Below the pieces are notes generated by a model. That model did not search any database. It saw nothing but the letters and a program-made list of their open reading frames with translations, and had not been told where the DNA came from. This document shows positions 1,445 through 33,248 of a stretch of DNA of 64,000 nt, piece after piece. The DNA is from Maridesulfovibrio sp. (GTDB taxonomy: Bacteria > Desulfobacterota > Desulfovibrionia > Desulfovibrionales > Desulfovibrionaceae), in contig NZ_OY763931.1 of assembly GCF_963667685.1 (NCBI RefSeq), positions 930,001 to 994,000 of the forward strand, given 5' to 3'. A program made the position numbers and the translations under genes. The stretch's first letter is position 1, and each line of letters begins with the position of its first letter.

Positions 1445-1473
1445 TTGACAAACCCCAAACTTTCAGGCTCAAT
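1445..1473 (+). promoter_or_regulatory. Promoter of cassette A
   Basis: A perfect -35 box TTGACA at 1445-1450 is followed after 17 bases by the weak -10 candidate CTCAAT (1468-1473). The predicted start, about 1480, coincides with the first base of the first leader hairpin. The same relation holds in the other two copies, which is the main support. Confidence 0.65.
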
Positions 1474-1479
1474 TCATTC

Positions 1480-1735
1480 AGGTGCTTCATCACACCTTTA
1501 TTCACTAGCGGTTTCCGCTCCCGATAGTTGGCGGCTTTTTTGTGTCCTTTGTACAGATATTTTCTGCACTTGTAGGCACTGCTTTATTCCTTTCCAATTT
1601 CGCCAAGATATTTGCCGGGAGTGCGGAGGCTATACAATACCCTTACGGGGAAATCCTCCCGCCGTTCTAGTGACGGTGATGAAGCTCCCGGCTTTTTTAT
1701 TCAAAAAAGCCAATCATCATCAAATCACTAGGAGG
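1480..1735 (+). ncRNA. Structured leader RNA, cassette A
   Basis: Predicted elements in order: P1 (AGGTG 1480-1484 with CACCT 1493-1497); box 1 CACTAG (1503-1508); P2 (AGCGG 1507-1511 with CCGCT 1515-1519); a competing terminator-like hairpin (CCGC 1515-1518 with GCGG 1531-1534, then T6); an imperfect hairpin near 1551-1570; P3 closing stem (GCCGGGAG 1614-1621 with CTCCCGGC 1685-1692); inside it P4 (GGAGG 1625-1629 with CCTCC 1655-1659, enclosing CCC-TTAC-GGG) and P5 (CCGT 1662-1665 with ACGG 1673-1676), whose loop shows CTAGTG (1667-1672); P6 (1690-1698 with 1703-1711); box 2 CACTAG (1726-1731) fused to the GGAGG ribosome-binding site (1731-1735). The stems are kept by compensating changes in copies B and C. 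CTAGTG can pair with either box. I know no named RNA family that matches; regulatory or self-processing function is inference. Confidence 0.75.
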
Positions 1736-1739
1736 CATC

Positions 1740-1955
1740 ATGCCGAACACAATCACCCTTCCCAAAGCTGTCATTACTGACGCTTACGATCTCACGATCG
1801 AGATCCAAGAACTGGCGAAATCCCTTAAGCACCACACTTTCCTTGAAACTCATCAAGGCGAAGGTAAAGTCCTACCCGGACAGCTCACCCAAATGGAAAT
1901 CATGCTTCACCTGATTGATGACCTGCTGGAAGGACTCGACCGCAAGGTGGTGTGA
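1740..1955 (+). CDS. Small cassette protein A (71 aa, MPNTIT type)
   Basis: The gene starts at ATG 1740, four bases after the GGAGG that belongs to leader box 2. Related proteins follow the leaders at 12552 and 32946 (minus strand). All three share the start MP(N/K)T(I/L)T(L/I)P, a central block IQEL-K-L-HHTFLE-HQG-G, and LPGQL. The protein is predicted helical, has no signal peptide or membrane segment, and is acidic toward the end. Its stop overlaps or abuts the start of the Rha-type gene, so translation is probably coupled. I do not recognise the family. A partner or inhibitor role for the following regulator is inferred from strict co-occurrence in three copies. Confidence 0.8.
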   Translation: MPNTITLPKAVITDAYDLTIEIQELAKSLKHHTFLETHQGEGKVLPGQLTQMEIMLHLIDDLLEGLDRKVV

Positions 1956-1957
1956 AT

Positions 1958-2629
1958 ATGGCTGATATAACACCAATCCTATCCATCGAAAAGGGCCGTC
2001 CCATAGTCTCATCATTGAGCATTGCCGAGCACTTCGGCAAGCGACATGACAACATAATTCGCGACATAGCCAAACTTGAAATTCCAGATAATTTTAGGCT
2101 CCTCAATTTTGAGGAGTCCTCTTACATCAACGGACAGAACAAACACCAACCCGCCTACAACCTAACCCGTGACGGCTTCACGATCCTAGTCATGGGCTTC
2201 ACTGGCAAGGCAGCCATGAAGTGGAAAATCCGCTACATAGAAGCTTTCAACGCCATGGAAAAGCAACTGCTGGAACCACAGCAGCTCTCCCCAACCACCC
2301 CGGCCAGCTTCGAGCAGCATAAAGAGCTATTCCCGCTCATCACAGAATGGTGCATCCTGCTCAAGGATAAAGACATCTGGCAACCGCAGGAAGTATTCCA
2401 TCAGGCAGTAGCAGCCATGCAGGTTGCTATAGGAAAACCTAAAGCCACTCCGATAAATACCCTGACTGCCATTGAAATAGAATACGCACGGGAATACCTG
2501 AACGCCCAGATCGCCATCCTAAAAGATACCACCCCGGTTCTTTCACTGGAAGATCAAGAAGCAGCGCGATTACGCTCTGAACGAGCGCGGAAGGCTGCGC
2601 GGGCTCGGTGGGATAGGAGCAAAAGATAA
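1958..2629 (+). CDS. Rha-family phage regulatory protein, cassette A
   Basis: Residues 1-105 match the phage Rha regulator family: PIVSSLSIAEHFGKRHDNIIR, then YNLTRDGFTILVMGFTGKAA and KWKIRYIEAFNAME (longer stretches split here). Rha proteins are DNA-binding regulators of lambdoid and other phages. The second half, about 110 residues, is shared with the other two cassette regulators and ends in a basic tail, RSERARKAARARWD. I chose ATG 1958 because an AAGGTGGTG precedes it; GTG 1952 is the alternative and overlaps the upstream stop. The protein is probably translated together with the small protein before it and controlled by the leader RNA. Confidence 0.85.
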   Translation: MADITPILSIEKGRPIVSSLSIAEHFGKRHDNIIRDIAKLEIPDNFRLLNFEESSYINGQNKHQPAYNLTRDGFTILVMGFTGKAAMKWKIRYIEAFNAMEKQLLEPQQLSPTTPASFEQHKELFPLITEWCILLKDKDIWQPQEVFHQAVAAMQVAIGKPKATPINTLTAIEIEYAREYLNAQIAILKDTTPVLSLEDQEAARLRSERARKAARARWDRSKR

Positions 2630-2690
2630 CAAACTCCACTTGTAGACATAATGGACAACAAGATATATCCTACATTTGAGGAGATAAAAA

Positions 2691-2987
2691 ATGGTTCTAC
2701 TTTTTGATGACGCAAAAAAACTGGAAAAAGCCGTTGGCGAAGAAGCAGCAGAAGTAATAGTCCACATTCTTGAAAAACAAGATGAAAAATATAAACAAGA
2801 ACTTTCAACTAAATACGATATATATATTATTCGAAAAGACATTGCCGAAAGCGAAGCAAAAATTAAAGCAAAAATAAATGATGTGAAAGCTGAAATAAAC
2901 GCAGGTAAGGCAGAAACCATCAAATGGGTAGCCGGACTGCTAGTTGTTCAGGCCGCTTCCATTGCCGCCCTAGTAAAACTCCTCTAA
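2691..2987 (+). CDS. Coiled-coil protein with C-terminal membrane helix (98 aa)
   Basis: A good ribosome-binding site (GAGGAG) precedes the ATG. The middle of the protein (about residues 20-75) is a charged coiled coil rich in Lys, Glu and Ala, and the C-terminus is a single hydrophobic helix (roughly WVAGLLVVQAASIAALVKLL). This layout resembles DUF1640/CCDC90-like tail-anchored proteins that are frequent in prophages. It lies between cassette A and the second copy of the 34-bp terminator, so it may have arrived with the cassette. No function is known to me. Confidence 0.75.
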   Translation: MVLLFDDAKKLEKAVGEEAAEVIVHILEKQDEKYKQELSTKYDIYIIRKDIAESEAKIKAKINDVKAEINAGKAETIKWVAGLLVVQAASIAALVKLL

Positions 2988-3007
2988 TCTATCTTACAGA
3001 AAAAGTT

Positions 3008-3041
3008 AAAAGCCGGAACCGCCCCAAGCAGTTCCGGCTTT
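3008..3041 (+). terminator. Intrinsic terminator, right copy of the 34-bp repeat
   Basis: Identical to 1399-1432 (stem AAAAGCCGGAAC with GTTCCGGCTTT). It ends the cassette A transcript. Confidence 0.85.
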
Positions 3042-3050
3042 CTCATTTCA

Positions 3051-3141
3051 TTAATCCCCCATCACCTTCCGCACAACCCCATTCCGCTGCTCCAGCAACC
3101 CATCAATCCGCTCCCGCTTCTGATCCGGGGTAAGGGTCCTG
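3051..3141 (-). pseudogene. Orphan 3' end of the giant ejection-protein gene
   Basis: On the minus strand this stretch encodes 29 codons and a stop that match the last residues of the giant protein ending at 3790 (RTLTPDQKRERID, then GVVR-VMGD). The DNA copies, 3052-3141 and 3791-3880, are 90 bases each with about 8 differences. No coding frame continues upstream, because the frame is replaced by the zinc-ribbon genes on the other strand. It is best read as the displaced end of a related allele left behind by recombination. Confidence 0.8.
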
Positions 3142-3144
3142 TAA

Positions 3145-3495
3145 ATGAGCTTTAAATTTGACAACGCCTTAGAAATATATAAAAGCCATTTTTTTATAAC
3201 AACATCAACCGCAGACCAACACATGATTCAAAACGCAATACAAATATATAATGAGCATTCATTATTTATGCTAATTGGAGCCATGGCTTTAGTTATAGCC
3301 TATAGCCTTATAAGAATCATTTTAGCACACAAACCAATTCCAACAATTAATGAACTAAAGAGCAATCCAGACAACCTTGACCCAGAAGGATTTTTACTTT
3401 GCCCACACTGTAAGCACAAAGTAACTTTCAATGCTTCGGGACATCATATTGTTGTTTGCCGCAAATGTGGTGAAACAATAGCCAAACGACATTAA
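3145..3495 (+). CDS. Membrane-anchored zinc-ribbon protein 1 (116 aa)
   Basis: One transmembrane helix lies at about residues 37-60, followed by a C-terminal zinc ribbon with two CxxC knuckles (CPHCKH and CRKCGE). The next gene is a shorter paralogue sharing the block LDPEGFLLCP and VTFNA-GGH. The likely ribosome-binding site (AAGGG, 3131-3135) lies inside the orphan fragment of the ejection gene, so that remnant now supplies translation signals. Codon use is AT-rich. The function is unknown; a membrane-tethered nucleic-acid or protein binder is a guess from the fold. Confidence 0.75.
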   Translation: MSFKFDNALEIYKSHFFITTSTADQHMIQNAIQIYNEHSLFMLIGAMALVIAYSLIRIILAHKPIPTINELKSNPDNLDPEGFLLCPHCKHKVTFNASGHHIVVCRKCGETIAKRH

Positions 3496-3528
3496 TACTT
3501 ATCAAAATTAAAACATAAAAGGTTTCCC

Positions 3529-3789
3529 GTGTTTGAAGACATTATACACTTTTTTTCATCTGATTTTAGCCGCATAGCACTAATAGCAGTACTCATAGGA
3601 ATCCTATCTTGGCTAAAAGAAGCTAGAATACCCACTGTCACAAAACTTAGAAAAAACCCAGCAAACTTAGATTCAGAGGGCTTTTTACTCTGTCCCGAAT
3701 GTAAATTTAAAGTAACCTTCAATGCTGGTGGACATAAATATGTCGTTTGTCGGAAATGTGGAAAAACCATTGCGAGACGCGAAGGTTAA
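3529..3789 (+). CDS. Membrane-anchored zinc-ribbon protein 2 (86 aa)
   Basis: A paralogue of the preceding gene with one transmembrane helix near residues 13-30 and a zinc ribbon (CPECKF and CRKCGK). It starts with GTG at 3529, preceded by AAAGG at good spacing. The gene ends one base before the stop of the giant minus-strand gene, so the two are convergent with no room for a terminator. The tandem pair probably arose by duplication and was inserted as a unit, see the flanking 90-bp repeats. Confidence 0.75.
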   Translation: MFEDIIHFFSSDFSRIALIAVLIGILSWLKEARIPTVTKLRKNPANLDSEGFLLCPECKFKVTFNAGGHKYVVCRKCGKTIARREG

Positions 3790-6700
3790 CTAATCCCCCA
3801 TCACCCGCCGCACAACCCCATTCCGTTTCTCCAACAACCTATCAATCCGCTCCCGCTTCTGATCCGGGGTAAGAGTTCTGGACAAATGGACCTGCCGTAT
3901 GCCCTTTTCAAATTCCCCGATCGCTCTGCGCAGCTGGTTGAGGGCTGGACGCTTGGCAAGCAGCTTGCGATTATCCTTATCCTGTAGGAGCTGCTTGGCC
4001 TTCTCCGGGCTTCCGGACTTGGAGTAGGCCATCACCGTCAGGTAGAGCTCATCCGCTTCATGAACCATATCATATAGCTCAGTGAGGTAGCGGCTATGCC
4101 GTGCCGGCTTATCGCGATAGAAACTTTTGATTAGCGGCATGTCGTCAAGACGTCTTGACGGCATTTCAGGTGCATCCACCATTCTACGGGTAATGACGTC
4201 AGACATGGAAAGCACATAAACGCCCAGTGTACCAAAATAGCCGTTCACCAAATGCTCGATGCGCTTGGGGCTGGTCCCTGTCTTCTCGCCCAGTAGCGCG
4301 GCAGTTTCACTGGTGCGGTGGTCGCGCTGTGCCTCCGGCCGGAGCCTCTGGAGTCTCATGGGTACGATGGAGCGACCTGTAAAAAAGGACTTGTCCGCCC
4401 ACTGTTCGATCACCGGGGTTATAATCTGCGGAGTGCCTACATTAAAGGTCTGAGTCAGCATGAACTGCAAACGGTCGGCAAGCAGATCCCCGTCCTGGCC
4501 ATCCACTGCGAACTCGGTCAGACGTTCCGGCAGAGTCCCGAATATTGCCCCGATTTCAAAGGGCTTGGGCATACGGAAATGCTTATCACTAATAAAAAAA
4601 TGGTAATAGTTATCCCGGTCCCAGTGTTCGAGCTCCTTGAACTCATCCCGATCCCGGTTATTCAGGTAGAGCAACACTGAAGCCAGCGCGACCATGGCCC
4701 CTTTAGTAAGGAAAGCTTGCGGATTCTCATATGCTCCCCGGCCAAGACGATGCAGCCCAACCATACGCGCACCGAAGAACGGCACAGTCTCGCACAGAAA
4801 ACGAATTGCCGGCCAATCACCGCCCATGGAATAATCCATGATATCCTTGGCTTCGTATGCAGCCTCAAGATGAGTACCGCCTTTCTCTTTTACTCCCTCA
4901 TATAGCCGCGCACGGGTAGCGTTCTCAAACGCGCTTCCAAATTCCTGCCAGCGGTCCCAACCATACTTCATAAACTTGCCCAGTTTCTCGGGAGTATCGA
5001 GGATTGTGCTCTCATCGATGTCGTGCTTCTTAACCAGCTTCTCCACCACCAGCTTACCAGCTCCCGGATCATGGCCATAAGAATAACCACCATGAAAAGC
5101 AGCTCCTGCTGCCATCATTTTAACGGTATCCTCATCCTTACGCATGGTCTTGATTGTGCCCTTGAAAGAGCCTACCAGCGGCTTGAATGTCCCGGTCCGG
5201 TCCACACCCCATGCATGCACGGTATCGCGCACGATATTCCGGAGCATGAAATCAGGGGTAGAAGTGACGCCTGTGGTCAGCAACCTCTTGAAGAACCGCG
5301 CCGCTTTCATGCCCATGTTGTTCCAGCTCTGCGCATTCACCGCGGTCAGCGATCGCAGAAGTAACGGATCACCCACATGGTAATAAACGGGCTTGCCGTC
5401 CCGCAGAACATGAACAACGTCCTTGGCGTCCGGAGCAACCATCCTGAAGACAGTTTGCAGGGAATCACGCTGCGCTGCCGTGAGCTGCCCAACGGCCTTG
5501 TCATCACCAAGAGTTTTGACCAACGCGCTGCGCAGGGCCCCGCCCTTCAACTTCAATGCCTGCCATTTGAAATCCGCCGGAACAGCCTCACCGATCTTCT
5601 CGGCATTGGTCATGGCCTGTTCCATGGCATTGTTCTTTACGCTGGCATCGATGAGGTGCGAGAAGTTGCGAATGATGTTTTCGAAAGGATCTCCAAGGTT
5701 GGCAGTACCGCCCTGCAAGCGGCGAATCCCAGAATACTGGCTGGCGATACCCTTCTTGCCCTTGGGTGCTTTCACATCCGCAGTTTCATCATTGATACGG
5801 TAGAAAGGAATATATTCATCATGCTCCCAGACCAGCCGACCGGAACCGGACACAATTCCGGCAGCTTCGGCAAAGTCGAGCACCTTTGTCTTGAACTGGA
5901 TGTAATTCTGGCGCACGTCCTCATATTTGGTTGCGCGTCCCTCATTCAGCTTGCAAAGTTCGTCAATCTCATCTTTGCTGAAAAGATTCTCGCGCCCTTC
6001 GTCCATGAGCTTTCGCGCACGCAAACCGACCATCCATGAAGTAAACCTGTCCAGCTCGGCAGCGACCGGCTCAAAGATCCTGGCAAGGCCTTCACCTTCC
6101 ACATCCATAGCCCCCTCGCGCCAAATGGGATGGCCATGCTCGATGACCGCCGCAATCTGATCCGCATGAGAGGTGGACATTCTGGCGGCCACGTAAGCTG
6201 ATTCCTGAACTCCCTCGATGCCGGCAGCCTGATCCAGATCCTTCAGCGAAGCAAAGCGGTCGAACATACCCTGATTTAATTCAGTACGCATGAACTCCCG
6301 TATCCTGCTGATCCGTTCAGCTATCGGACTCTTGCTTTCACCCTTGGGACCGATCTTGGATTTAGCGGACTTAAGCACCGGATTGGATCTGGAATAGGAA
6401 GGGGCTGCTTCGCCGGATTTGATATCCGCTACGCTCTCGCCCTGCACAGTCCAGAACACAGCATCGGCAACAAGCCGGTTAATTTCCGGACGGGTCAGTG
6501 AGCCGGGCAGCTTCACGCGGATCCGTGTCAGCCAATTCAGCACAGCATCAACAACCTTACGCCAGATTGATTTTTCCCTCGAATTCAAAACCTCATCAAG
6601 CCGCACCTTCTCGGCAAGCTTGGCAAGATATTCGTGGGCAGCAACATCCCGGTCGGCCTGAACAGAAATATCCAGCCCGTAATCCTCTACTACTTCATTG

Positions 6701-9700
6701 TAGGCGGCTTCGCGTTTAGCAGCACGATGAACCTTACCCAGCAGGGACAGATAATCTTTGTCTCCCATCAAACCGCGTAAGCCGTGGTGCGCTCCCTGTT
6801 CATGCAACCAGAGCTCGACTGCCCGCTTACGGGAGGCAATATTCTCGGCAACCATCCAAACCTTCCCGGTCTTAGGATCGTTACAGGCTTCGCAATAGCC
6901 ACCGCCCTGCGCCTTGAAGGCCTTGCGGATATGTTCCGGAAGATCTTCGAACACGGAAACCACTTCCAGCGGCAGCGCGTTCTCCGCACGGGCTTGCAAG
7001 CCCTGCACAGCTCCACGCACGTTCCGTGTTGATGTATGGTTACGAGGATTGGATGTTTTGGAAAAATGAATACCGTCATTACGCTTTGACGCTTTGACGT
7101 CATGACGGCTTGACGGTTTAGCGTCTTGCTGTCTGGAATATTCAGCGAGAACGGAAACAAGTCCTTTGCGGACCAGTTCAATGTCGTGGAAGTAACGGGT
7201 ATCCCTAGTGCTTCTGGTGAATACAGAAAGAATCCGGTCAATAAGCTTCTTAATCTTTTTCGCCACCTGACGAAATTGATTTGGTTCTTCAGCTGCAAGC
7301 TCTTCCCAGAAATCGGGATCCATGAACTGCTCACCTGAAAAATCGGCTATCAGTTCTTCATCAGCTTGAGCGCGAGTAAGCCCAGCTTCTCTGCCTGCCA
7401 TGCGCTCTAATCGATCTCTGCGCCTATAATGATCGTCCCAACGCTCCTCCACACTTTGAATCTGAACCAGATCGTACAGCTTGTCATAAAGCGCAGGAGA
7501 TTCTTTTTTCATCAAATGGATTACTTCATGCCCAAGCAAAAACAGATGCGGAGCATTCGCATCAGGACGCATGAAAATAATTTTCTGATTTAAATCAGCA
7601 TGAGCTTCAGCTGGAAGAATAGGTAGGTCGGAGGCAACATAAACAATCTTTTTACCGAACAGACCTGCAATGCTGTCCAGCATATGACTCTCATTCAGCT
7701 CTTGTTTTTTTGAGCCTCTTCCATTGCGAGCTGTTTTTTGAACTCTTCGATCTCCGACTTCCGAATGAATGGGGGACAGCTCAGAAATATTTCCCACTCC
7801 TCGTCTGTCGCGTCCGGTCCCGGATATACCATCGGTTCCAGCCACTCCTTCCTCAACGGCCCTGTCCTTCGAGGATAACTGTGCAGAAACCCTTCTGACT
7901 GCGAAGACTGATCCGTCCGGGAAGTCGAGTCCATACTCTTTTCTGAGTTGCTCTTCGTAGAGCCGGGTTTCTTTTGTTGTTCGCTTTGAATTTTCGTCAT
8001 AAGTGCTCCTGTCAACTGGTTCGATATTTGTACCACCGAGTGAAGCCGGAAGTCTATCCAGTTGTTCGGCAATCTCCTGCAACGGACTTTCTTCCTGATA
8101 GAAAGCCCAGCCCTTCTCCGCGCGGTTCCATTTCGCCCCGGCTTCCTTCAGGGCCTGCTTGTTGTTGTAAGTTTCCCCTGTGACGACCCAGAAGTCGCCC
8201 TTGGAATTGGAGGCTTGTTTGAGTTCAAGGCCGGATTTTTTAAAAACATTCTCATGATTGATTGGCTTCTCTGGATCAGGCACGCCAGCAGCTTCAGTTT
8301 TCTGCTCAGGTAGCACCTGTTGTTGCGGTATCTGAAGAGCAATTTCAGCACCGCTATGTTCCGGCACATTCTGAATATTTGACGGCATAGCGTCTTGACG
8401 TTCTAACGCTTGGACGCCAGCAGGGGCAGGCAATGATTCAGGGACATTAATCTCTGAACCTCCCGGGTTCTCGGGAGGAATGACTATTTCAGCTTGAGGG
8501 TTTACAGCTTGAACAGGCTGCACCGATTCTCGGGGATAAGTTTCAACTACATCATTTGGTAATTGAACAGGACTCTGTTCTGTTGACTGTTGCCGAACCA
8601 CTCCAAAAGTCGAATCAACTTCCCTTTGCTGAGGAAGGGTCTGTTCTATGTTTAAAAGCTCACTTCCCGCAAAAGGAACTTGATTAGTTCCTAGCTGTTG
8701 CGGGGTATCCAGCTTCACATCAGGGACAGCCTCAGAAGCTGCAAGACTTTTACTTTCCGGTTCATCCTGTCGCTTTGACGTCATGACGCCTTGACGCTTT
8801 TCTGAATCAAGTTCACCTTCATTGTCTTCCAGCAAATCAACAGGAACACCGGATTTCATCTTTTCTGAAGGAGAGCCAGCATCAGAAATTATATTTTCCG
8901 GTTCTTCTTCCAGAACCTCGTCAGCTGTGTCACCGACAGCACTCTCGGCTTTCGCCTTCGGCTTCAATGCATCCACTGCCATCTGCCCGACCTTTACGCC
9001 ACCACCCATGATGTTGGTCAGCAGAAAAGTAGACGGAGCCTGTTCCTTGAAGGCCTCTGTCACGGTTGGGGCTTTATCCCGCAATCCGACTTCAGCTTCA
9101 ACACCGCCCTGACCATACCCGGTCATTGTCTCGGTAAGCTGCTCTTCAGCCTGTGTTATGCCCCACTGAGACCCCAGTCTTGCAACAACATTTTTAGGAA
9201 GAAATTTGTTCAACTTGCCGAGGATAGTTCCTAGTCCGACAGCACTACCCACAGCTTCTGGAAGAGCTTCCCAGAGACCATATTCAGTCGCATTCTCTTC
9301 AATAAGCTTACGTGCGTTTGCCCATTCCTGCTCACTTACGGGCCTTCCGTAAGCTGTTTTGTATTCTTCGTTTACAGCATCAAAATAATCCTGAACAAAC
9401 TGCTCTTTGGTTGCCCGGTATGCAGTCCCGCCAGTTACCCCGGTACCAACAGCCCAGCCAGCAGCCGGACCAGCAACAGCGGTTGTTGTTGCCCCGGCCC
9501 CGATCCCGGCAACCATATTGGTCAATGAGTTGGGTACGCTGTCCATTGCTCCGGCAAAATCACGAACCTTAAAACCAAGCCCTACCTCACGGTCATCATT
9601 TCCATACTTTTGTAAATACGCATCCGGTTCTTCACGGCTTCTGGCAAGACGATCCCCGTATTCATCTTCACCGCCGCGCCACATTTCACCGACAGTTTCA

Positions 9701-9870
9701 ACCATGCGCTCCGGCAGACGCGTGATCCCTTCACCGATTACAGACAAAACACTGGGCGAATCCCCTTCATCAGTCCCAGCCATCCCAAAACCGGACTCTG
9801 GTTCAGCAGCAAAAAATTCATTATAAAGAAAGTCAGCCTCTTCCGCTGTAAACAATTCATGTGAACTCAT
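3790..9870 (-). CDS. Giant internal virion/ejection protein with zincin motifs and LPD38-like C-terminus (2026 aa)
   Basis: I chose ATG 9870 (MSSHELFT) because GGGGGT precedes it at good spacing. The size, the position after the tail genes and the Gly/Ala-rich N-terminal segment (about residues 100-170) fit internal proteins that podoviruses eject with their DNA. Near residue 585 a segment (EAGAKWN-AEKGWAF) matches small domains common in large polyvalent phage proteins. Near residue 780 is a zinc-protease motif HEVIH, and near 1022 HEQGAHHG, a second metal-site-like motif. From about residue 1400 to the end the sequence resembles large polyvalent protein-associated domain LPD38, including a motif like PDFMLRNIVRD. 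A roughly 250-residue Gln/Pro/Glu-rich linker (about 320-580) looks disordered. Its 3' end is duplicated at 3051-3141. Exact enzymatic activity is unproven. Confidence 0.8.
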   Translation of the reverse strand: MSSHELFTAEEADFLYNEFFAAEPESGFGMAGTDEGDSPSVLSVIGEGITRLPERMVETVGEMWRGGEDEYGDRLARSREEPDAYLQKYGNDDREVGLGFKVRDFAGAMDSVPNSLTNMVAGIGAGATTTAVAGPAAGWAVGTGVTGGTAYRATKEQFVQDYFDAVNEEYKTAYGRPVSEQEWANARKLIEENATEYGLWEALPEAVGSAVGLGTILGKLNKFLPKNVVARLGSQWGITQAEEQLTETMTGYGQGGVEAEVGLRDKAPTVTEAFKEQAPSTFLLTNIMGGGVKVGQMAVDALKPKAKAESAVGDTADEVLEEEPENIISDAGSPSEKMKSGVPVDLLEDNEGELDSEKRQGVMTSKRQDEPESKSLAASEAVPDVKLDTPQQLGTNQVPFAGSELLNIEQTLPQQREVDSTFGVVRQQSTEQSPVQLPNDVVETYPRESVQPVQAVNPQAEIVIPPENPGGSEINVPESLPAPAGVQALERQDAMPSNIQNVPEHSGAEIALQIPQQQVLPEQKTEAAGVPDPEKPINHENVFKKSGLELKQASNSKGDFWVVTGETYNNKQALKEAGAKWNRAEKGWAFYQEESPLQEIAEQLDRLPASLGGTNIEPVDRSTYDENSKRTTKETRLYEEQLRKEYGLDFPDGSVFAVRRVSAQLSSKDRAVEEGVAGTDGISGTGRDRRGVGNISELSPIHSEVGDRRVQKTARNGRGSKKQELNESHMLDSIAGLFGKKIVYVASDLPILPAEAHADLNQKIIFMRPDANAPHLFLLGHEVIHLMKKESPALYDKLYDLVQIQSVEERWDDHYRRRDRLERMAGREAGLTRAQADEELIADFSGEQFMDPDFWEELAAEEPNQFRQVAKKIKKLIDRILSVFTRSTRDTRYFHDIELVRKGLVSVLAEYSRQQDAKPSSRHDVKASKRNDGIHFSKTSNPRNHTSTRNVRGAVQGLQARAENALPLEVVSVFEDLPEHIRKAFKAQGGGYCEACNDPKTGKVWMVAENIASRKRAVELWLHEQGAHHGLRGLMGDKDYLSLLGKVHRAAKREAAYNEVVEDYGLDISVQADRDVAAHEYLAKLAEKVRLDEVLNSREKSIWRKVVDAVLNWLTRIRVKLPGSLTRPEINRLVADAVFWTVQGESVADIKSGEAAPSYSRSNPVLKSAKSKIGPKGESKSPIAERISRIREFMRTELNQGMFDRFASLKDLDQAAGIEGVQESAYVAARMSTSHADQIAAVIEHGHPIWREGAMDVEGEGLARIFEPVAAELDRFTSWMVGLRARKLMDEGRENLFSKDEIDELCKLNEGRATKYEDVRQNYIQFKTKVLDFAEAAGIVSGSGRLVWEHDEYIPFYRINDETADVKAPKGKKGIASQYSGIRRLQGGTANLGDPFENIIRNFSHLIDASVKNNAMEQAMTNAEKIGEAVPADFKWQALKLKGGALRSALVKTLGDDKAVGQLTAAQRDSLQTVFRMVAPDAKDVVHVLRDGKPVYYHVGDPLLLRSLTAVNAQSWNNMGMKAARFFKRLLTTGVTSTPDFMLRNIVRDTVHAWGVDRTGTFKPLVGSFKGTIKTMRKDEDTVKMMAAGAAFHGGYSYGHDPGAGKLVVEKLVKKHDIDESTILDTPEKLGKFMKYGWDRWQEFGSAFENATRARLYEGVKEKGGTHLEAAYEAKDIMDYSMGGDWPAIRFLCETVPFFGARMVGLHRLGRGAYENPQAFLTKGAMVALASVLLYLNNRDRDEFKELEHWDRDNYYHFFISDKHFRMPKPFEIGAIFGTLPERLTEFAVDGQDGDLLADRLQFMLTQTFNVGTPQIITPVIEQWADKSFFTGRSIVPMRLQRLRPEAQRDHRTSETAALLGEKTGTSPKRIEHLVNGYFGTLGVYVLSMSDVITRRMVDAPEMPSRRLDDMPLIKSFYRDKPARHSRYLTELYDMVHEADELYLTVMAYSKSGSPEKAKQLLQDKDNRKLLAKRPALNQLRRAIGEFEKGIRQVHLSRTLTPDQKRERIDRLLEKRNGVVRRVMGD

Positions 9871-9895
9871 CAGTACCCCCTGCATATAAAACAAA

Positions 9896-12269: not shown

Positions 12270-12299
12270 TTGACAAAACAAGAAATCTTAGACCATAAA
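12270..12299 (+). promoter_or_regulatory. Promoter of cassette B
   Basis: Perfect -35 TTGACA (12270-12275), 18-base spacer, then CATAAA (12294-12299) as -10. The predicted start, about 12306, lies just before leader hairpin P1. Confidence 0.65.
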
Positions 12300-12305
12300 G
12301 TCTTT

Positions 12306-12547
12306 ACGGAGCGTCGAAACTCCATCACTAGGCGGTCACCGCCCCCGACATAGCGGATTTTTTGCGTCCAATGAATGACCTTAATTCATTGGCTATTGCT
12401 TTATTCCATCCAATTCTTGTCCGTATTTTGCCGGGAGTGGGGAAATGTCCAAGGCTTTGCCCAAAATACCCAGCCTCGCCTAGTGGAGGTTCGAACTCCC
12501 GGCATTTTCATATTCGTGAAGATGCCAATTCGAAAAGCACTAGGAGG
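12306..12547 (+). ncRNA. Structured leader RNA, cassette B
   Basis: The same plan as copy A in clearly diverged sequence: P1 GGAG (12308-12311) with CTCC (12320-12323); box 1 CACTAG (12326-12331); P2 GGCGG (12331-12335) with CCGCC (12339-12343); terminator-like alternative CCGC with GCGG (12353-12356) and T6 (12358-12363); a perfect 9-bp hairpin (12368-12376 with 12384-12392); P3 GCCGGGAG (12430-12437) with CTCCCGGC (12496-12503); P4 TGGG (12438-12441) with CCCA (12469-12472); P5 CCTC (12474-12477) with GAGG (12486-12489), whose loop carries CTAGTG (12480-12485); P6 (12501-12510 with 12517-12526); box 2 CACTAG (12538-12543) plus GGAGG (12543-12547). P1, P2, P4, P5 and P6 all differ from copy A yet still pair, which is strong evidence for the fold. 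The unpaired core TTGCTTTATTCC is nearly the same in all copies. Confidence 0.75.
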
Positions 12548-12551
12548 CATC

Positions 12552-12791
12552 ATGCCAAAAACCATCACCCTTCCCGAGAGCTACTTTGTAGATACCTACA
12601 CGCAGGCTCAGGACATTCAGGAACTGGTCAAGCTTCTCCAACACCACACTTTCCTTGAAATGCATCAGGGCGACGGGCAGATCCTGCCCGGCCAGCTCAC
12701 CTTACTTGAAAACATTAATGTCCAGCTTGAAATGCTGACCAATGATCTGGACCATAATGCATTCCCAAAAGAAGGTGGTGGTAATGCCTGA
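12552..12791 (+). CDS. Small cassette protein B (79 aa, MPKTIT type)
   Basis: Homologue of the 71-residue protein of cassette A and of the 79-residue protein of cassette C. The shared core reads DIQEL then HHTFLE-HQGDG-LPGQL. The start ATG follows GGAGG of leader box 2 by four bases. An upstream in-frame extension into the leader exists but is rejected, because it would run through the RNA structure. The gene overlaps the Rha-type gene by 8 bases, with AAGGTGGTGGT inside its 3' end acting as the ribosome-binding site of the next gene. Predicted all-helical and cytoplasmic; function unknown. Confidence 0.8.
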   Translation: MPKTITLPESYFVDTYTQAQDIQELVKLLQHHTFLEMHQGDGQILPGQLTLLENINVQLEMLTNDLDHNAFPKEGGGNA

Positions 12792-13467
12792 TATCATCCC
12801 CAAAGTATCCATCGAAAAAGGCCGTCCCATTGTCTCATCATTAAGCATTGCCGAGCACTTCGGCAAACAACACAAGGACGTTCTTCGTAAAATTGAACAC
12901 CTTGAAATTCCAGAAGAATTTAACGAGCGCAATTTTGCGCCCGTTGATTATAAAGACGCAAAAGGGGAATCCCGCCCCGCCTACAACCTCACCCGTGACG
13001 GCTTCCACATCCTCGTCATGGGCTTCACAGGCAAGGCGGCCATGCAATGGAAGATTCGTTACATTGAAGCTTTCAATGCCATGGAGAATATGCTCTCAGA
13101 ACCGCAGCAGCTTCCAGCTACAACACCCAGCAGGGACAAATTCAAGGAACTCTACCAGCTCCTGACCGAATGGAGCACCCAGCTCCGGGATAAAGAAGTC
13201 TGGGACCCGCATAACAGTCTGCAAAATGCCATTGCCTGCATGATGATCTCCATCGGCAAGGATGAACGGCACCCAGTTCTGGAACTAACAACAGATGAAA
13301 TATTCCACGGCTGCGAATACCTGCGCATGCAGATCACTACCATCAGCGGCGCACCAGCCCAGCCTGTTCAATCTGCGGTAGAACTTGAAAAAGCCCGTAT
13401 CCGCTCTGAAAAGGCCCGGAAATCAGCCCGGGCCAGATGGGATAAACAGAAGGCTCTCAAAAAATAA
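12784..13467 (+). CDS. Rha-family phage regulatory protein, cassette B
   Basis: Residues 1-105 are the Rha domain (RPIVSSLSIAEHFGK, YNLTRDGFHILVMGFTGKA, KIRYIEAFNAME), close to cassette A. The second half shares the cassette-specific C-terminal domain and ends RSEKARKSARARWDK plus a Lys-rich tail. ATG 12784 is chosen over upstream codons because it follows AAGGTGGTGGTA and matches the family N-terminus. It lies on the plus strand, against the surrounding late genes, and is followed by a hairpin that terminates minus-strand transcription. Confidence 0.85.
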   Translation: MPDIIPKVSIEKGRPIVSSLSIAEHFGKQHKDVLRKIEHLEIPEEFNERNFAPVDYKDAKGESRPAYNLTRDGFHILVMGFTGKAAMQWKIRYIEAFNAMENMLSEPQQLPATTPSRDKFKELYQLLTEWSTQLRDKEVWDPHNSLQNAIACMMISIGKDERHPVLELTTDEIFHGCEYLRMQITTISGAPAQPVQSAVELEKARIRSEKARKSARARWDKQKALKK

Positions 13468-24370: not shown

Positions 24371-24383
24371 TTCAAATCACCCC

Positions 24384-25397: not shown

Positions 25398-25405
25398 TTC
25401 AACTC

Positions 25406-26374: not shown

Positions 26375-26383
26375 CATTTCCTC

Positions 26384-26614
26384 CTATGAATACGGATCCT
26401 GACTTTCCTGCTTTTTAGGAGCAGCGGTCAGATCCATTAAAATATCCTGATAAGCCTTGATTCTGCCCTGCAATTGCGGAACAGCATCCACATGGGCATT
26501 GACCAGATTTTCCGTCTCTTCCCGCATGCGCAGTTGAAGATATTCGCGGAACAGACTTACGGCAGCCCCACCACCTTCAAGAATTGCTTTTGCTTTCATC
26601 TGGCTAGTCATCAT
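26384..26614 (-). CDS. Small helical protein between scaffold and staple genes (76 aa)
   Basis: I chose ATG 26614 because AAGGAG precedes it and the overlap with the upstream gene is small; longer versions run antifunctionally through that gene. The protein is helical (VSLFREYLQLRMREETENLV) with no motifs. It may assist portal or scaffold assembly. Confidence 0.6.
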   Translation of the reverse strand: MMTSQMKAKAILEGGGAAVSLFREYLQLRMREETENLVNAHVDAVPQLQGRIKAYQDILMDLTAAPKKQESQDPYS

Positions 26615-29844: not shown

Positions 29845-30182
29845 CACTTAACCACCTTGTTGAAATGTTCCCAGATAGCGATTCCGATAAAACCGATCCC
29901 GCCAGTGGCCAACATTTTGAAAACCAGACACCAGAAAGCTCTGCGGCCTTCGAGCATCACACCCACAGCCTTGTGGTGATCCCGCATTTTCTCGATGCCT
30001 TTAGCGTGCTCACCATCACCGAGGTCACGGACCATGCCCATAAAATGGCCAACGGCTTTAGCCGCTTCCGGCTCCAGCTTGCAAACACCGTTACCGGTAT
30101 TCTGCAAACCGATAGCTATGCCTTCAGCAACAGCAGCAGTAATTTCTTTCCGAAGTTCCGGATCAAGAACAGATTCACCCAC
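29844..30182 (-). CDS. Small membrane protein of the lysis module (112 aa)
   Basis: Most of the protein is soluble and helical; one transmembrane helix lies near the C-terminus (FKMLATGGIGFIGIAIWEHF). It starts at GTG 30182 with AGGGAG upstream and is coupled to the endolysin-like gene. Possibly a holin-like or spanin-type accessory protein. It is the first gene of the visible leftward late block. Confidence 0.55.
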   Translation of the reverse strand: MGESVLDPELRKEITAAVAEGIAIGLQNTGNGVCKLEPEAAKAVGHFMGMVRDLGDGEHAKGIEKMRDHHKAVGVMLEGRRAFWCLVFKMLATGGIGFIGIAIWEHFNKVVK

Positions 30183-30198
30183 AACAGACTCCCTAAGG

Positions 30199-30345
30199 GG
30201 GTGTCCATGCCTAGCCGACAGATACGGACACCCAGCGAGGTTATAAAGGCAAAAACAAAGCCTCCATACTTACGGGATTCTGTAACACGGGGTTTTGGGG
30301 TGAGGACGTGAGAGATCGCCACAGATCAGCAGAGATCAGTGGGGA
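30199..30345 (-). promoter_or_regulatory. Regulatory stretch at the head of the lysis/structural block
   Basis: An 8-bp hairpin (GGGTGTCC 30199-30206 with GGACACCC 30226-30233) lies in the 5' leader of the leftward operon, 17 bases from the first gene. Further out a minus-strand TATAAC (30240-30245) could be a -10 without a good -35. Three AGATC motifs at 30313, 30323 and 30333 recur every 10 bases. The late promoter itself is not certain. Confidence 0.45.
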
Positions 30346-30350
30346 GGGGG

Positions 30351-30380
30351 TTGACAGGGGTGTGGGAGTAATGGTGAATA
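30351..30380 (+). promoter_or_regulatory. Possible rightward promoter before the 284-aa membrane gene
   Basis: A consensus TTGACA at 30351-30356 is followed after 18 bases by TGAATA (30375-30380). It stands just downstream of the phased AGATC repeats. Confidence 0.45.
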
Positions 30381-30414
30381 ATCTTTATTATTTTTAAATC
30401 AATAGGATCGCAAT

Positions 30415-31269
30415 ATGATATCAGAAAAAGATTTTAAAGAGATAAGAAAGGTACGCAATAAAGAACATATACTTAACAGCACTTTTCTTGACACTAACTA
30501 TTTTCAAATTAAATCCAATGACTTGATTGCTTGCGTTACATTTTTAAGTTTCACATTTATAGCAAACTATGTACTTTTAGACGCAACTATTGCAACAACA
30601 TATTTAGACTATTTTAAATCTACAGACCTTCTCGTACAAGCAATACTTTCATTAGAAAAAATAGAAACTACAGCCTACACAAAATGCACTTTAAATACTT
30701 TTTATGCACTCATACTATCTGGAACAACCACAATTTTATTTAGATATATTTACTATATTAAAAACGAACTATTCAACAAGATTGAAAATAAAATAAAAAA
30801 CATACTAATAACAAAAGAAAATGCAATTAAAATCACACTAACATTAGCAATATTCACAATAATCATTCATTGCTCACTACTATTATCAATGTCAATTGAT
30901 ACATACATAAACACAAAATATTACTATATAGAATACACATTAATAACCATAAACACTACACTAATCCTAATTTTGATAGAAGTAACATCCAAACGTTTCT
31001 TATTAACTTTTTCTTTGACAATGGCACTATTTATAACCACAGGAACGTCAATACACTTAATCGGATGTTCTTCTGAAAAGACACAACTACTTGAGAATAC
31101 TTCTTTCTCAAATTTTTCCAATGAATGTAAATCTCACTTTGTAATAAACGGCAAGAGCGAACAACTTTTGATACTTTGTAAGCTCAAAAACGGATACCTA
31201 ACAATGGACAAAAACAACTCATACAGACTAATTTACAATAAGTGTATTGATGAAATTAAATTAAAATAA
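30415..31269 (+). CDS. Polytopic membrane protein (284 aa), accessory
   Basis: Five hydrophobic segments are visible (about residues 38-60, 95-118, 140-165, 172-192, 198-220), then a small extracytoplasmic domain with two to three Cys that might form disulfides. Base composition is very AT-rich compared with the phage core. No homologue is recognised. A terminator (31271-31295) follows. As a lone accessory membrane gene it could be a superinfection-exclusion or defence protein, but nothing in the sequence proves that. Confidence 0.65.
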   Translation: MISEKDFKEIRKVRNKEHILNSTFLDTNYFQIKSNDLIACVTFLSFTFIANYVLLDATIATTYLDYFKSTDLLVQAILSLEKIETTAYTKCTLNTFYALILSGTTTILFRYIYYIKNELFNKIENKIKNILITKENAIKITLTLAIFTIIIHCSLLLSMSIDTYINTKYYYIEYTLITINTTLILILIEVTSKRFLLTFSLTMALFITTGTSIHLIGCSSEKTQLLENTSFSNFSNECKSHFVINGKSEQLLILCKLKNGYLTMDKNNSYRLIYNKCIDEIKLK

Positions 31270-31270
31270 A

Positions 31271-31295
31271 AACACCCCGCCTACCAAGCGGGGTG
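31271..31295 (+). terminator. Hairpin, left copy of a 25-bp repeat
   Basis: CACCCCGC pairs with GCGGGGTG around CTACCAA. The same 25 bases recur at 31983-32007, so the toxin-antitoxin pair lies between two copies. The plus-strand T-run is poor here, so it may act mainly on the minus strand. Confidence 0.7.
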
Positions 31296-31351
31296 CTTCA
31301 TCTCAACCAAAACCCATTGACCAATAACCAAAATATGGTTACAAATAAACC

Positions 31352-31648
31352 ATGAGCTGGACAGTTAAACTTTCTACCAAGCTTCAGAAGAAAGCCCTGA
31401 AACTTCCCAAGGCGATACAGGAATCATTTTTCCTGCTGGGTAAGGATTTACAGACTGACGGGCCGGAGCAGTTAAGCTGGCCTAATTATGGAAAGCTGAA
31501 AGGGGCGAAGGACGTTTATCACTGTCATCTGAACAAGGGTAAACCCAGATATGTTGTTGTCTGGAAAATTACAGATGACGATATTCAAATCATGGAGATT
31601 AAATATGTTGGAACTCACGAGAAGGTCAATTACCGAAAATTCTGCTGA
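31352..31648 (+). CDS. RelE/HigB-type toxin (98 aa)
   Basis: The fold pattern of RelE/ParE toxins is visible: a helix pair with LQKKALKLPKAIQESFFLLG, then strands YHCHLNKGKPRYVVVWKI and IQIMEIKYVGTHEKV, the last with a His near the C-terminus as in HigB/RelE enzymes. The next gene overlaps it by 44 bases and encodes an HTH antitoxin, giving the toxin-first order of HigBA systems. Such toxins cleave mRNA on the ribosome. No ribosome-binding site is obvious upstream of the ATG. Confidence 0.8.
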   Translation: MSWTVKLSTKLQKKALKLPKAIQESFFLLGKDLQTDGPEQLSWPNYGKLKGAKDVYHCHLNKGKPRYVVVWKITDDDIQIMEIKYVGTHEKVNYRKFC

Positions 31649-31979
31649 GTTGTGCCTGAAGGTTCCGGCAAAGGATGCCAACGCGATCGCTGAAGCATTC
31701 ATGCAGTTCCTAAAGCTGGCAAAGTATGACGTGCGCGAGATCAATGATGAAGGCGAAGAGCTTATTGATTTCAACGACGCTTTTCCCGAACCAACTCCCG
31801 CCCAACTGCTGCGCGGAGCCAGAACACGCGAAGGACTGACTCAGGCAGAACTTGCAGACGCACTCGGCATTCACAAGAACAATGTTTCTGAAATGGAACG
31901 AGGCGTACGTAACATCAGCGTGGATATGGCCAAACGGCTGGCTGACGTTTTAAATACTTCCTACAAGCACTTCTTATAA
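31605..31979 (+). CDS. XRE-family antitoxin, HigA-like (124 aa)
   Basis: ATG 31605 is chosen because GGAGATTAAAT precedes it. Residues 68-118 are a Cro/C1-type helix-turn-helix (LRGARTREGLTQAELADALG, then NNVSEMERG). The N-terminal half has a short beta-rich segment that probably wraps the toxin. It likely neutralises the RelE-type toxin and represses the pair. The terminator at 31982-32010 follows directly. Confidence 0.85.
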   Translation: MLELTRRSITENSAELCLKVPAKDANAIAEAFMQFLKLAKYDVREINDEGEELIDFNDAFPEPTPAQLLRGARTREGLTQAELADALGIHKNNVSEMERGVRNISVDMAKRLADVLNTSYKHFL

Positions 31980-31981
31980 AA

Positions 31982-32010
31982 AAACACCCCGCCTACCAAG
32001 CGGGGTGTTT
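31982..32010 (+). terminator. Bidirectional terminator, right copy of the 25-bp repeat
   Basis: AAACACCCCGC pairs with GCGGGGTGTTT (11 bp, 7-nt loop). It lies between the antitoxin gene (plus strand) and the BRO gene (minus strand), which converge here. Confidence 0.85.
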
Positions 32011-32021
32011 CATTTCAAATC

Positions 32022-32714
32022 CTATTTCTCAATCGCCTTCGCTTTATCCCAGCGTGCCCGGGCAGCTTTCTTAGCCTTCTCTGACCGGAGCCGTGCGGCT
32101 TCCTGTTCTTCCGGTGATATTATCTTGCCAGAGTCGCCCTGCATTATTGTTAGCTGGGTAGTCAGATAGCGTTGCACGTGATCGGCTTCGGCCTTGGATA
32201 AATCCTTGAGCGCGGAGTTCGGATCTTTTCCTAGAAAGACCATAATCTTGCAGATGCTTTTATCCAACACCTCATGCTCTTTCCAATCTTCCTTTTCCTT
32301 GAGCAACACTCCCCACTTTGAAAGCAGGTCGTAGAGTGAATCATATTCGTCCAAGCTCGGCAGCGCGGATTGATCTGCACCCTGCCCCATTGCATAGCAC
32401 CCAGTCTTCCTCAAGCTGGGTATCACTTCCGAGGTAATCCACTTGCGGAACTTCTTTGCTTCCGGCTTGCGGCTTTTGAAGATTAATGCATACAGGCCAG
32501 ACTCGGAAATAGCTGACACTTCCTGATTACCGCCGGGGGTGTATATATTACATACACCCTTTTCATCATCTTCTAATGATTCAAGATTTTGTCTAATGTT
32601 CTGAATTTCGAGAACATTACCAACGTCCTTTGCAACGAACCACGGGTTGCCGTCACCGCCCTGATGGACTCTGACAACTGATTCGCCGAAATCGAAAGGA
32701 ATAACTTCAGACAT
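32022..32714 (-). CDS. BRO-N-domain regulator, cassette C (230 aa)
   Basis: Residues 1-100 are a BRO-N domain (VRVHQGGDGNPWFVAKDVG, ISESGLYALIFKSRKPEAKK, FRKWITSEVIPSLRKTG), a DNA-binding antirepressor-type domain of phages and viruses. The C-terminal 110 residues match the C-terminal domain of the Rha proteins in cassettes A and B and end RSEKAKKAARARWDK. So the DNA-binding half has been exchanged while the rest of the cassette was kept. ATG 32714 follows AAGGAGGTAAGTG and overlaps the 3' end of the small gene. Confidence 0.85.
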   Translation of the reverse strand: MSEVIPFDFGESVVRVHQGGDGNPWFVAKDVGNVLEIQNIRQNLESLEDDEKGVCNIYTPGGNQEVSAISESGLYALIFKSRKPEAKKFRKWITSEVIPSLRKTGCYAMGQGADQSALPSLDEYDSLYDLLSKWGVLLKEKEDWKEHEVLDKSICKIMVFLGKDPNSALKDLSKAEADHVQRYLTTQLTIMQGDSGKIISPEEQEAARLRSEKAKKAARARWDKAKAIEK

Positions 32715-32946
32715 CACTTACCTCCTTACTACGAAAGGTAGAATGATCCAGATTGTTAACCAACCCATCTAAACGATCCGTCAGTACTTCCAGCAACGAC
32801 AGCTGGCCCGGTAGAACGTGACCATCTCCCTGATGGGTTTCGAGAAAAGTGTGGTGCAATAGCAGTTTGGTGAGTTCCTGAATGTCCAGAGCCTTGTTAT
32901 AAGTCTCCACAAAATGCCTTTCAGGAATGGTAAGAGTTTTCGGCAT
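32707..32946 (-). CDS. Small cassette protein C (79 aa, MPKTLT type)
   Basis: Homologue of the small proteins in cassettes A and B (DIQEL-KLLLHHTFLETHQGDG and LPGQLSLLE). The start ATG (32946) lies four bases after GGAGG of leader box 2. It keeps its sequence although its downstream partner has a BRO-N rather than a Rha head, which suggests it interacts with the shared C-terminal domain. Function unknown. Confidence 0.8.
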   Translation of the reverse strand: MPKTLTIPERHFVETYNKALDIQELTKLLLHHTFLETHQGDGHVLPGQLSLLEVLTDRLDGLVNNLDHSTFRSKEVSDV

Positions 32947-32950
32947 GATG

Positions 32951-33212
32951 CCTCCTAGGGATTTTTTCGGGTGGCATCTTCCAACATGAAAGATACCGGG
33001 AGCTCGAAACCGTCCCTAGAACGGCGAGAGGATTTCCCCCGAAGGGTATTGTATGGCCTCTGCACTCCCGGCAAATATCTTGGCGAAATTGAATGGAATA
33101 AAACAGTACCTGCAAGTGCAGAAAATCTCTAATCTTCTGATCACAGGACACAAAAAAGCCGCCAACTATCGGGAGCGGAAACCGCTAGGGAACAAAGGTG
33201 TTTCGAGCACCT
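32951..33212 (-). ncRNA. Structured leader RNA, cassette C
   Basis: On the minus strand: P1 AGGTG (33212-33208) with CACCT (33200-33196); box 1 CCCTAG (33190-33185); P2 AGCGG (33186-33182) with CCGCT (33178-33174); terminator-like alternative ending in T6 (33157-33152); P3 GCCGGGAG (33072-33065) with CTCCCGGT (33002-32995); P4 AGAGG with CCTCT (33061-33057 and 33031-33027), enclosing CCC-TTCG-GGG; P5 CCGT with ACGG (33024-33021 and 33013-33010), loop with CTAGGG (33019-33014); P6 (32997-32988 with 32982-32973); box 2 CCCTAG (32960-32955) fused to GGAGG (32955-32951). Here both boxes and the loop differ from copies A and B at the same pair, so pairing is kept. Confidence 0.75.
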
Positions 33213-33218
33213 GCTGTG

Positions 33219-33248
33219 ATAAAGCCAGAAAATGTGGGTTGTTGTCAA
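33219..33248 (-). promoter_or_regulatory. Promoter of cassette C
   Basis: A consensus -35 TTGACA (33248-33243) is followed after 18 bases by CTTTAT (33224-33219). The predicted start, about 33212, is the first base of hairpin P1, as in the other copies. Confidence 0.65.

What the first reader, a model, noticed from the sequence alone, without database searches (positions are those of the whole stretch)
1445..33248. Three copies of an RNA-leader, small protein and Rha/BRO regulator cassette in one prophage
Three loci (1445-2629 plus, 12270-13467 plus, 33248-32022 minus) share the same four-part order: consensus -35 box, structured 245-265 nt leader, MPxTxT small protein and an overlapping regulator. 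Sequences are diverged but structure and order are kept, and RNA and proteins travel together. I know of no named system with this composition. Seen directly: repeats, order, overlaps. Inferred: that it is one functional module.
Basis: partly seen in the sequence, partly recalled or inferred. Interest (0 to 1): 0.92.

Follow-up and report, generated by a model that had tools for sequence, protein, structure and literature searches.

The report
Phage antirepressor switches with antisense RNA
Three copies of a prophage genetic switch, in which a small RNA made at the start of a message is built to block the start of a downstream antirepressor gene by base pairing, as in the classic phage P1 c4 system; the RNA belongs to a family that has so far been read as a virulence-linked regulator.

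Summary
Three diverged operons (1445-2629 +, 12270-13467 +, 33248-32022 -) share a -35 box, a structured leader, an MPxTxT small ORF and a Rha or BRO-N gene that overlaps or abuts it. That no named system fits is not supported: the order is that of P1 immI (a1/b1, C4 RNA, a2/b2, icd, ant) and resembles Gifsy-1 isrK-orf45-anrP. The RNA core is Rfam RF02221 (sRNA-Xcc1): two copies above cut-off, the third at 23.7 bits, below it. Its third-stem loop (b') and following junction (a') are complementary to an upstream site (a1/b1) and to a site on the small ORF's Shine-Dalgarno (a2/b2). The pairing covaries: over 157 non-redundant elements the cognate score is 12.5 downstream and 13.8 upstream, against 9.2 and 10.3 for permuted partners (z 24 and 33). 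Of 80 downstream proteins, 43 match one anti-repressor PHROG. The MPxTxT protein was found at five loci, all beside leaders; leaders mostly lack it. Best reading: C4-type antisense control of antirepressor operons, RF02221 being an unrecognised C4-like family. Repression, RNA processing and the decoy role of a1/b1 are inferred from P1 and Gifsy-1, not shown.

The parts
1445..1450 (+). locus 1 -35 box TTGACA
   Evidence: no -10 found by scan
1484..1493 (+). locus 1 a1 site (within hairpin GGTGC..CACC), complement of a'
   Evidence: by eye; locus 1 was dropped as a near-duplicate of L014 in the counts
1502..1508 (+). locus 1 b1 site TCACTAG followed by CGG
   Evidence: by eye
1515..1541 (+). locus 1 terminator-like hairpin CCGC/GCGG plus T-run (isrK-like segment)
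   Evidence: by eye; such a hairpin is common in relatives; not called by the simple scan
1613..1701 (+). locus 1 C4-like RNA core, Rfam RF02221, 64.9 bits; b' loop 1667-1673, a' junction 1676-1685
1713..1722 (+). locus 1 a2 site (TCATCA, repeated)
1725..1731 (+). locus 1 b2 site TCACTAG, overlaps SD AGGAGG 1730-1735
1740..1955 (+). locus 1 small protein MPxTxT (71 aa)
1952..2629 (+). locus 1 Rha-domain putative antirepressor (GTG 1952, or ATG 1958)
   Evidence: PF09669 1.7e-33; PHROG 518 Rha-like
12270..12275 (+). locus 2 -35 box
   Evidence: no -10 found by scan
12313..12318 (+). locus 2 a1 site (5-nt exact match to a')
12326..12332 (+). locus 2 b1 site CACTAGG
12339..12363 (+). locus 2 terminator-like hairpin CCGC/GCGG plus T-run
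   Evidence: by eye; not called by the simple scan
12429..12512 (+). locus 2 C4-like RNA core, divergent RF02221 (23.7 bits, below cut-off 53); b' 12479-12485, a' 12490-12495
12529..12544 (+). locus 2 a2 (12529-12534) and b2 (12538-12544), overlapping SD AGGAGG 12542-12547
12552..12791 (+). locus 2 small protein MPxTxT (79 aa)
12784..13467 (+). locus 2 Rha-domain putative antirepressor
   Evidence: PF09669 3.7e-32
33243..33248 (-). locus 3 -35 box
   Evidence: no -10 found by scan
33200..33208 (-). locus 3 a1 site GCTCGAAAC
33185..33191 (-). locus 3 b1 site TCCCTAG
33152..33178 (-). locus 3 terminator-like hairpin plus T-run
   Evidence: not called by the simple scan
32986..33073 (-). locus 3 C4-like RNA core, RF02221, 61.3 bits; b' 33019-33013, a' 33010-33002
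32955..32969 (-). locus 3 a2 (32969-32965, 5 nt) and b2 TCCCTAG (32961-32955), overlapping SD AGGAGG
32707..32946 (-). locus 3 small protein MPxTxT (79 aa)
32022..32717 (-). locus 3 BRO-N putative antirepressor
   Evidence: PF02498 1.9e-23; PHROG 130 anti-repressor Ant

Best explanation
Each locus is a C4-type antirepressor operon of a prophage. The transcript runs through an isrK-like segment carrying a1/b1 and a terminator-like hairpin, a C4-like antisense RNA (RF02221 type) carrying b' (third-stem loop) and a' (junction), the a2/b2 site on the Shine-Dalgarno of a small ORF, the small ORF, and an overlapping or abutting antirepressor gene. Shown by sequence: the order, the overlaps, the two-segment complementarity of a'/b' to both a1/b1 and a2/b2, and its covariation over many specificities. 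Inferred from P1/P7 and Gifsy-1: the RNA is cut out of the transcript (in P1 by RNase P), pairs with a2/b2 in trans, blocks small-ORF translation and, by coupling, antirepressor synthesis, keeping the prophage silent and blocking superinfecting phages of the same specificity; the a1/b1 segment acts as a decoy for the antisense RNA and relieves repression. Differences in a and b between the three copies should give at least partly separate specificities.
For: Rfam RF02221 at two loci above cut-off. The layout equals P1 immI as annotated: a1, b1, C4, a2, b2, icd, ant1, and the same script finds P1's known pairs. Over 157 non-redundant elements the ordered two-segment score is 12.49 vs a permuted mean of 9.23, sd 0.136, max 9.76 of 5000 (downstream), and 13.76 vs 10.32, sd 0.104, max 10.71 (upstream); own sequence 250 nt further downstream gives 9.36 (n 151). 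Score >=12: 117/157 downstream and 127/157 upstream, against 7.3% and 16.7% of non-cognates. Natural experiment: locus 1 and L014 leaders are identical at 264 of 310 columns, and one dinucleotide is changed compensatorily at b1, b' and b2. Locus 3 differs from locus 1 by one base in b, changed at all three sites. 85 distinct b2 strings of 6 nt or more in the 132-element set. 80 downstream proteins: Bro-N 25, Rha 13, P22_AR_C 10, P22_AR_N 9, KilA-N 9, AntA 6 (a protein can count twice). A related leader lies at genes annotated antirepressor in 9 of 15 listed phage records and in the 10 E. coli rows listed of 374 records.
Against: RF01695 (C4), RF03163 (c4-a1b1) and RF01394 (isrK) do not match the window (at gathering; with E up to 1 at locus 1; with E up to 10 at locus 2; locus 3 was scanned at gathering only), and RF02221 does not match the P1 immI stretch at E up to 10, so the tie to C4 rests on layout and pairing. 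40 of 157 elements lack a downstream target at score 12, and 16 of 157 lack both. The cognate is the single best partner in only 34 (downstream) and 36 (upstream) of 157, and in the top 5% in 87 and 102; related phages share a' and b'. Specificity inside genomes is partial: in the window each core pairs best with its own target by duplex energy, but several G113 and G145 copies do not. No -10 box by scan. No expression or processing data.
Confidence: 0.9

Rival explanations
1. The leader is a cis-only attenuator: it folds around its own start site or terminates transcription, with no RNA acting in trans.
For: A hairpin plus T-run often follows b1 (T5 within 75 nt in 101 of 115; perfect stem of 4 or more in 88 of 101, mononucleotide-shuffled 24.5%). 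In the whole-leader folds the 5' half pairs with the C4-like half.
Against: The core resembles a discrete RNA: Xcc sRNA-Xcc1 is an 88-nt RNA by end mapping with a Northern band of about 100 nt (PMC2996969, passages). The mimicry of a2/b2 by a1/b1 is that of P1, where the RNA acts in trans.
Confidence: 0.15
2. RF02221 RNAs are host regulators of many trans targets (virulence or vesicle-borne), and the link to antirepressors is incidental.
For: This is the published reading for Xanthomonas, Xylella and Aeromonas (passages of PMC2996969, PMC12189769, PMC12444791, PMC8780938). Three Xanthomonas loci show no a2/b2 before the small ORF (by eye).
Against: Covariation with adjacent sites at z 24 and 33; antirepressor-type genes downstream. 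Those Xanthomonas loci keep a1/b1 matches upstream.
Confidence: 0.05
3. The MPxTxT protein is the effector (for example a division inhibitor like Icd) and the antirepressor gene is secondary.
For: It is under purifying selection (dN/dS 0.10-0.34 in the 5 of 10 pairs that can be measured), whereas Gifsy orf45 is reported to vary in amino-acid sequence.
Against: Most RF02221 leaders lack it. No alignment with P1 Icd. No Pfam family.
Confidence: 0.15

Closest known systems
P1/P7 immI operon c4-icd-ant (RF01695 C4, RF03163 c4-a1b1)
   Same: Order of promoter, a1/b1, antisense RNA with b' loop and a' junction, a2/b2 before and on the SD, small ORF, overlapping antirepressor
   Different: RNA core matches RF02221, with a conserved AAUACAAUACCC..GGGGAAU arm, and not RF01695; small protein not alignable with Icd by BLASTP; Rha or BRO-N proteins instead of P1 Ant1/2; three copies in one region
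Gifsy-1 isrK-orf45-anrP
   Same: Short RNA segment with terminator upstream, small ORF overlapping an antirepressor gene, translational coupling (PMC4825925, passages)
   Different: RF01394 does not match here; the small protein here is conserved at protein level. That paper's text has no occurrence of 'c4 RNA' or 'phage P1'
sRNA-Xcc1 (RF02221)
   Same: Covariance-model match above cut-off at loci 1 and 3
   Different: Described as a virulence-linked sRNA; no passage read here ties it to C4 control or antirepressors, although PMC12189769 (table passage) lists C4, isrK and sRNA-Xcc1 matches within 400 nt in one Xylella genome
A. baumannii C4-like sRNA group
   Same: Many C4-like RNAs in one genome with variable loops (PMC5320573, passages)
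   Different: Those match the C4 motif of P1/P7

Membership tests
C4 antisense RNA (RF01695) | Match to the family covariance model | tested here: not met
   No hit in the window at gathering, at locus 1 with E up to 1 or locus 2 with E up to 10; locus 3 at gathering only
C4 antisense RNA (RF01695) | Two antisense segments complementary to own upstream a1/b1 and to a2/b2 at the RBS, in P1 order | tested here: met
   Window loci (some a segments only 5 nt); 103 of 157 elements score 12 or more on both sides
C4 antisense RNA (RF01695) | RNase P processing from the operon transcript and repression in trans | not testable with these tools
   No RNA data
sRNA-Xcc1 (RF02221), loci 1 and 3 | Score at or above 53 bits | tested here: met
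   64.9 and 61.3 bits
sRNA-Xcc1 (RF02221), locus 2 | Score at or above 53 bits | tested here: not met
   23.7 bits, E 0.075
isrK (RF01394) and c4-a1b1 (RF03163) | Match to the covariance models | tested here: not met
   positive control P1: RF03163 51 bits, RF01394 35.1 bits, below its cut-off of 50
P1-type immI operon | Small ORF overlapping an antirepressor gene downstream of the RNA | tested here: met
   Loci 2 and 3 overlap by 8 nt; locus 1 by 4 nt if the GTG is the start
P1-type immI operon | Downstream protein antagonises the prophage repressor | not testable with these tools
   Domain assignment only
Icd small proteins | Sequence similarity to P1 Icd | tested here: not met
   No local alignment; one pairwise BLASTP only

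The most novel reading that the evidence does not exclude
RF02221 is a widespread, combinatorial immunity code: one RNA fold with two short variable segments that evolves mutually distinct antirepressor locks, so that several run in one genome. Elements that stand alone in tandem, or keep a1/b1 but have lost their own target, would be retained by hosts or prophages as immunity against the antirepressor operons of other phages.
Probability: 0.25. Interest if true: 0.8.

Novelty: new variant of a known kind. Interest (0 to 1): 0.6.

Why it matters
It gives a mechanism, testable by base swaps, to an RNA family that papers read as a virulence or vesicle-borne regulator. It extends C4-type antirepressor control from RF01695 to RF02221, which Rfam keeps outside the C4 clan (clan column empty; CL00128 for C4). 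The loci come from Desulfovibrio-type hosts and from gamma-, beta- and alpha-proteobacteria (record titles; class names recalled), and show how several such switches can sit in one prophage region.

Tried and rejected
Rejected: a new system without relatives (P1 and Gifsy layouts match); recent identical duplication (copies diverged); Icd homology of the small protein.

Weak or negative: extra complementarity between the 5' flank of the RNA core and the isrK-like hairpin, seen in the window folds, is only weakly general (29 of 157 vs 12.4% of non-cognates, z 3.4). Elements without their own target matching targets elsewhere: 33 of 68 at 13 nt or more against a shuffled mean of 16 (max 22), but at 12 nt or more 42 against 34 (max 41); shared a' segments confound this. 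No phage record matched the locus 1 leader (E up to 1) or the locus 3 small protein (E up to 0.01); the one hit has E 9 and is not informative. The small-protein scan of genome contigs found none and that of viral contigs one. No exact direct repeat of 14 nt or more of 43080-43300, around the tRNA at 43165-43245, was found elsewhere in the window, so prophage ends are unknown. L167 and L176 carry, after a small ORF, a protein that I recognise from recall as SymE-like (not scanned); b' does not match the small-ORF start there. The simple terminator scan did not call the b1-proximal hairpins.

Limits of the sample: the pattern scan of viral contigs stopped at 120 rows, and the pattern fixes the P2 arm but not a'/b'. 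Of 191 pattern matches 187 were kept; with 32 others and 45 more this makes 264 elements, 258 usable, 157 after clustering. The locus 1 element was dropped as a near-duplicate of L014 before these counts. One search scored over 40 genomes with stricter filters that lose weak matches.
Full report
Observation. The window's small proteins share MPxTxT, HHTFLE and LPGQL blocks. The regulators carry Rha (loci 1, 2) or BRO-N (locus 3) domains at Pfam E-values of 1.7e-33, 3.7e-32 and 1.9e-23, on a similar C-terminal part that includes ARARWD. Leaders fold better than shuffles. A -35 box is plain; no -10 was found by the scan.

Identity of the RNA. Rfam assigns 1613-1701(+) and 33073-32986(-) to RF02221, sRNA-Xcc1, above cut-off. 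Locus 2 gives 23.7 bits, E 0.075, a divergent member. C4, c4-a1b1 and isrK models do not match here (locus 3 at gathering only), while the P1 immI stretch is matched by C4 and c4-a1b1 and not by RF02221.

The pairing. In P1 naming, b' is the loop of the third stem and a' the junction after it. In locus 1, b' CTAGTGA is the complement of b1 and b2 (TCACTAG); in locus 3, b' CTAGGGA is the complement of TCCCTAG at both sites; in locus 2, CCTAGTG pairs with CACTAGG at both. The a segments differ more: GTGATGAAGC, TTCGAA and GTTTCGAGC; the a1 match of locus 2 and the a2 match of locus 3 are only 5 nt long. In all three loci b2 overlaps AGGAGG, which ends 4 nt before the small-ORF ATG. The closest relative, L014, has the locus 1 leader at 264 of 310 aligned columns, with one dinucleotide changed at b1, b' and b2 together.

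Test at scale. RF02221 was found in 33 of 150 genomes of the order, with up to 13 matches in one genome. Pooled: 264 elements, 258 usable, 157 non-redundant. Best ordered two-segment complementarity: downstream 12.49 against a permuted mean of 9.23 (5000 permutations, max 9.76); upstream 13.76 against 10.32 (max 10.71). Same-strand controls give 8.92 and 10.62. Score 12 or more on both sides 103, upstream only 24, downstream only 14, neither 16. In the earlier 132-element set an SD-like motif lay at the end of b2 in 98 of 132, and there were 85 distinct b2 strings. Only 34 (downstream) and 36 (upstream) of 157 cognates outrank every other partner; related phages share segments.

Neighbours. 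97 loci had b2 of 5 nt or more and a start codon in reach; 10 first ORFs ran off the contig and one was under 20 aa. Of the 86 complete ones, 60 exceed 130 aa and 26 do not; of those 26, 18 are followed by an ORF that overlaps their end. Of 80 downstream proteins scanned (60 long first ORFs and 20 second ORFs), Bro-N hits 25, Rha 13, P22_AR_C 10, P22_AR_N 9, KilA-N 9, AntA 6 (one protein can hit several), and PHROG 245, anti-repressor Ant, hits 43. A related leader has matches in 16 phage records, 9 of the 15 listed with an annotated antirepressor under the match (others unannotated, 'hypothetical' or other), and in 373 of 5426 E. coli genomes, where all 10 rows listed show an antirepressor. 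In Neisseria weixii L213, C4 (RF01695) and RF02221 matches alternate, two of each within about 1.0 kb.

Small protein. The profile finds it in 2 of 149 genomes of the family, at 5 places, all beside RF02221-type leaders; the viral hit L003 is, by eye, the same sequence as one of them. It is under purifying selection, so it is probably a working protein as well as a coupling device, but it is not needed by the RNA system in general.

Mechanism. Shown: anatomy and covarying complementarity. Inferred: processing, trans repression, coupling and decoy. The inference rests on P1/P7, where C4 is cut by RNase P and its loops occlude the RBS (as summarised in PMC5320573, passages, and PMC12197685, passages; annotation of NC_005856), and on Gifsy-1, where short IsrK in trans activates orf45 and, by coupling, anrP (PMC4825925, passages). 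In the window folds the 5' half pairs with the C4-like half, in line with a decoy.

Comparison and novelty. It works like P1 C4 and has its layout, but fails the RF01695 model test, so it is filed as a C4-like variant in RF02221. Searches: sRNA-Xcc1 alone gave 18 papers; two or more of RF02221, RF01695, sRNA-Xcc1 and C4 antisense RNA gave 4; sRNA-Xcc1 with prophage, antirepressor or antisense terms listed 10 of 890, none of which holds sRNA-Xcc1, so that search says little. Of the 18 papers I saw passages of six: PMC2996969, PMC12189769, PMC12444791, PMC8780938, PMC11932112 and PMC11701678. None of these passages ties the family to C4 control; PMC12189769 does list C4, isrK and sRNA-Xcc1 matches side by side in a Xylella genome. 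The 2011 paper on sRNA-Xcc1 was not held. The claim that the link is unpublished is limited to this.

Context. Phage late genes on the minus strand (internal virion protein, tail fibre, major head, portal/adaptor) lie between loci 2 and 3; a terminase and an integrase domain follow at 35.6-37.7 kb. A Cro/C1-type HTH gene (31551-31979 +) converges on locus 3. Its product is a candidate target of the antirepressor, by position only.

Noticed in passing
L223, L224, L225, L227 (genome G145): RF02221 cores without visible a1/b1 or a2/b2 of their own precede a complete operon in tandem (by eye); one (G145:C4:63626-63715) matches the a2/b2 of an operon in genome G129 over 7+7 nt.
   Followed up: partly
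L165, L167, L176 (Xanthomonas): RF02221 elements keep a1/b1 but show no matching a2/b2 before the small ORF; in L167 and L176 a small ORF overlaps what looks like a SymE gene (recalled, not scanned).
   Followed up: partly
L213:4610-5651 (Neisseria weixii): Alternating RF01695 (C4) and RF02221 matches, two of each, in about 1.0 kb.
   Followed up: no
window 31551-31979 (+): Cro/C1-type HTH gene convergent with locus 3; possible repressor target.
   Followed up: no
window 2691-2987 (+): 98-aa coiled-coil protein after locus 1; a similar protein start (MLLFDDGKKLEKAVGEEAAK) follows the first ORF in viral locus L040.
   Followed up: no
window 3790-9894 (-): 2034-aa phage protein of unknown function (PHROG 18222, 1.2e-127).
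   Followed up: no
window 33297-34724 and 39732-41060 (+): Two pentapeptide-repeat proteins near the prophage genes.
   Followed up: no
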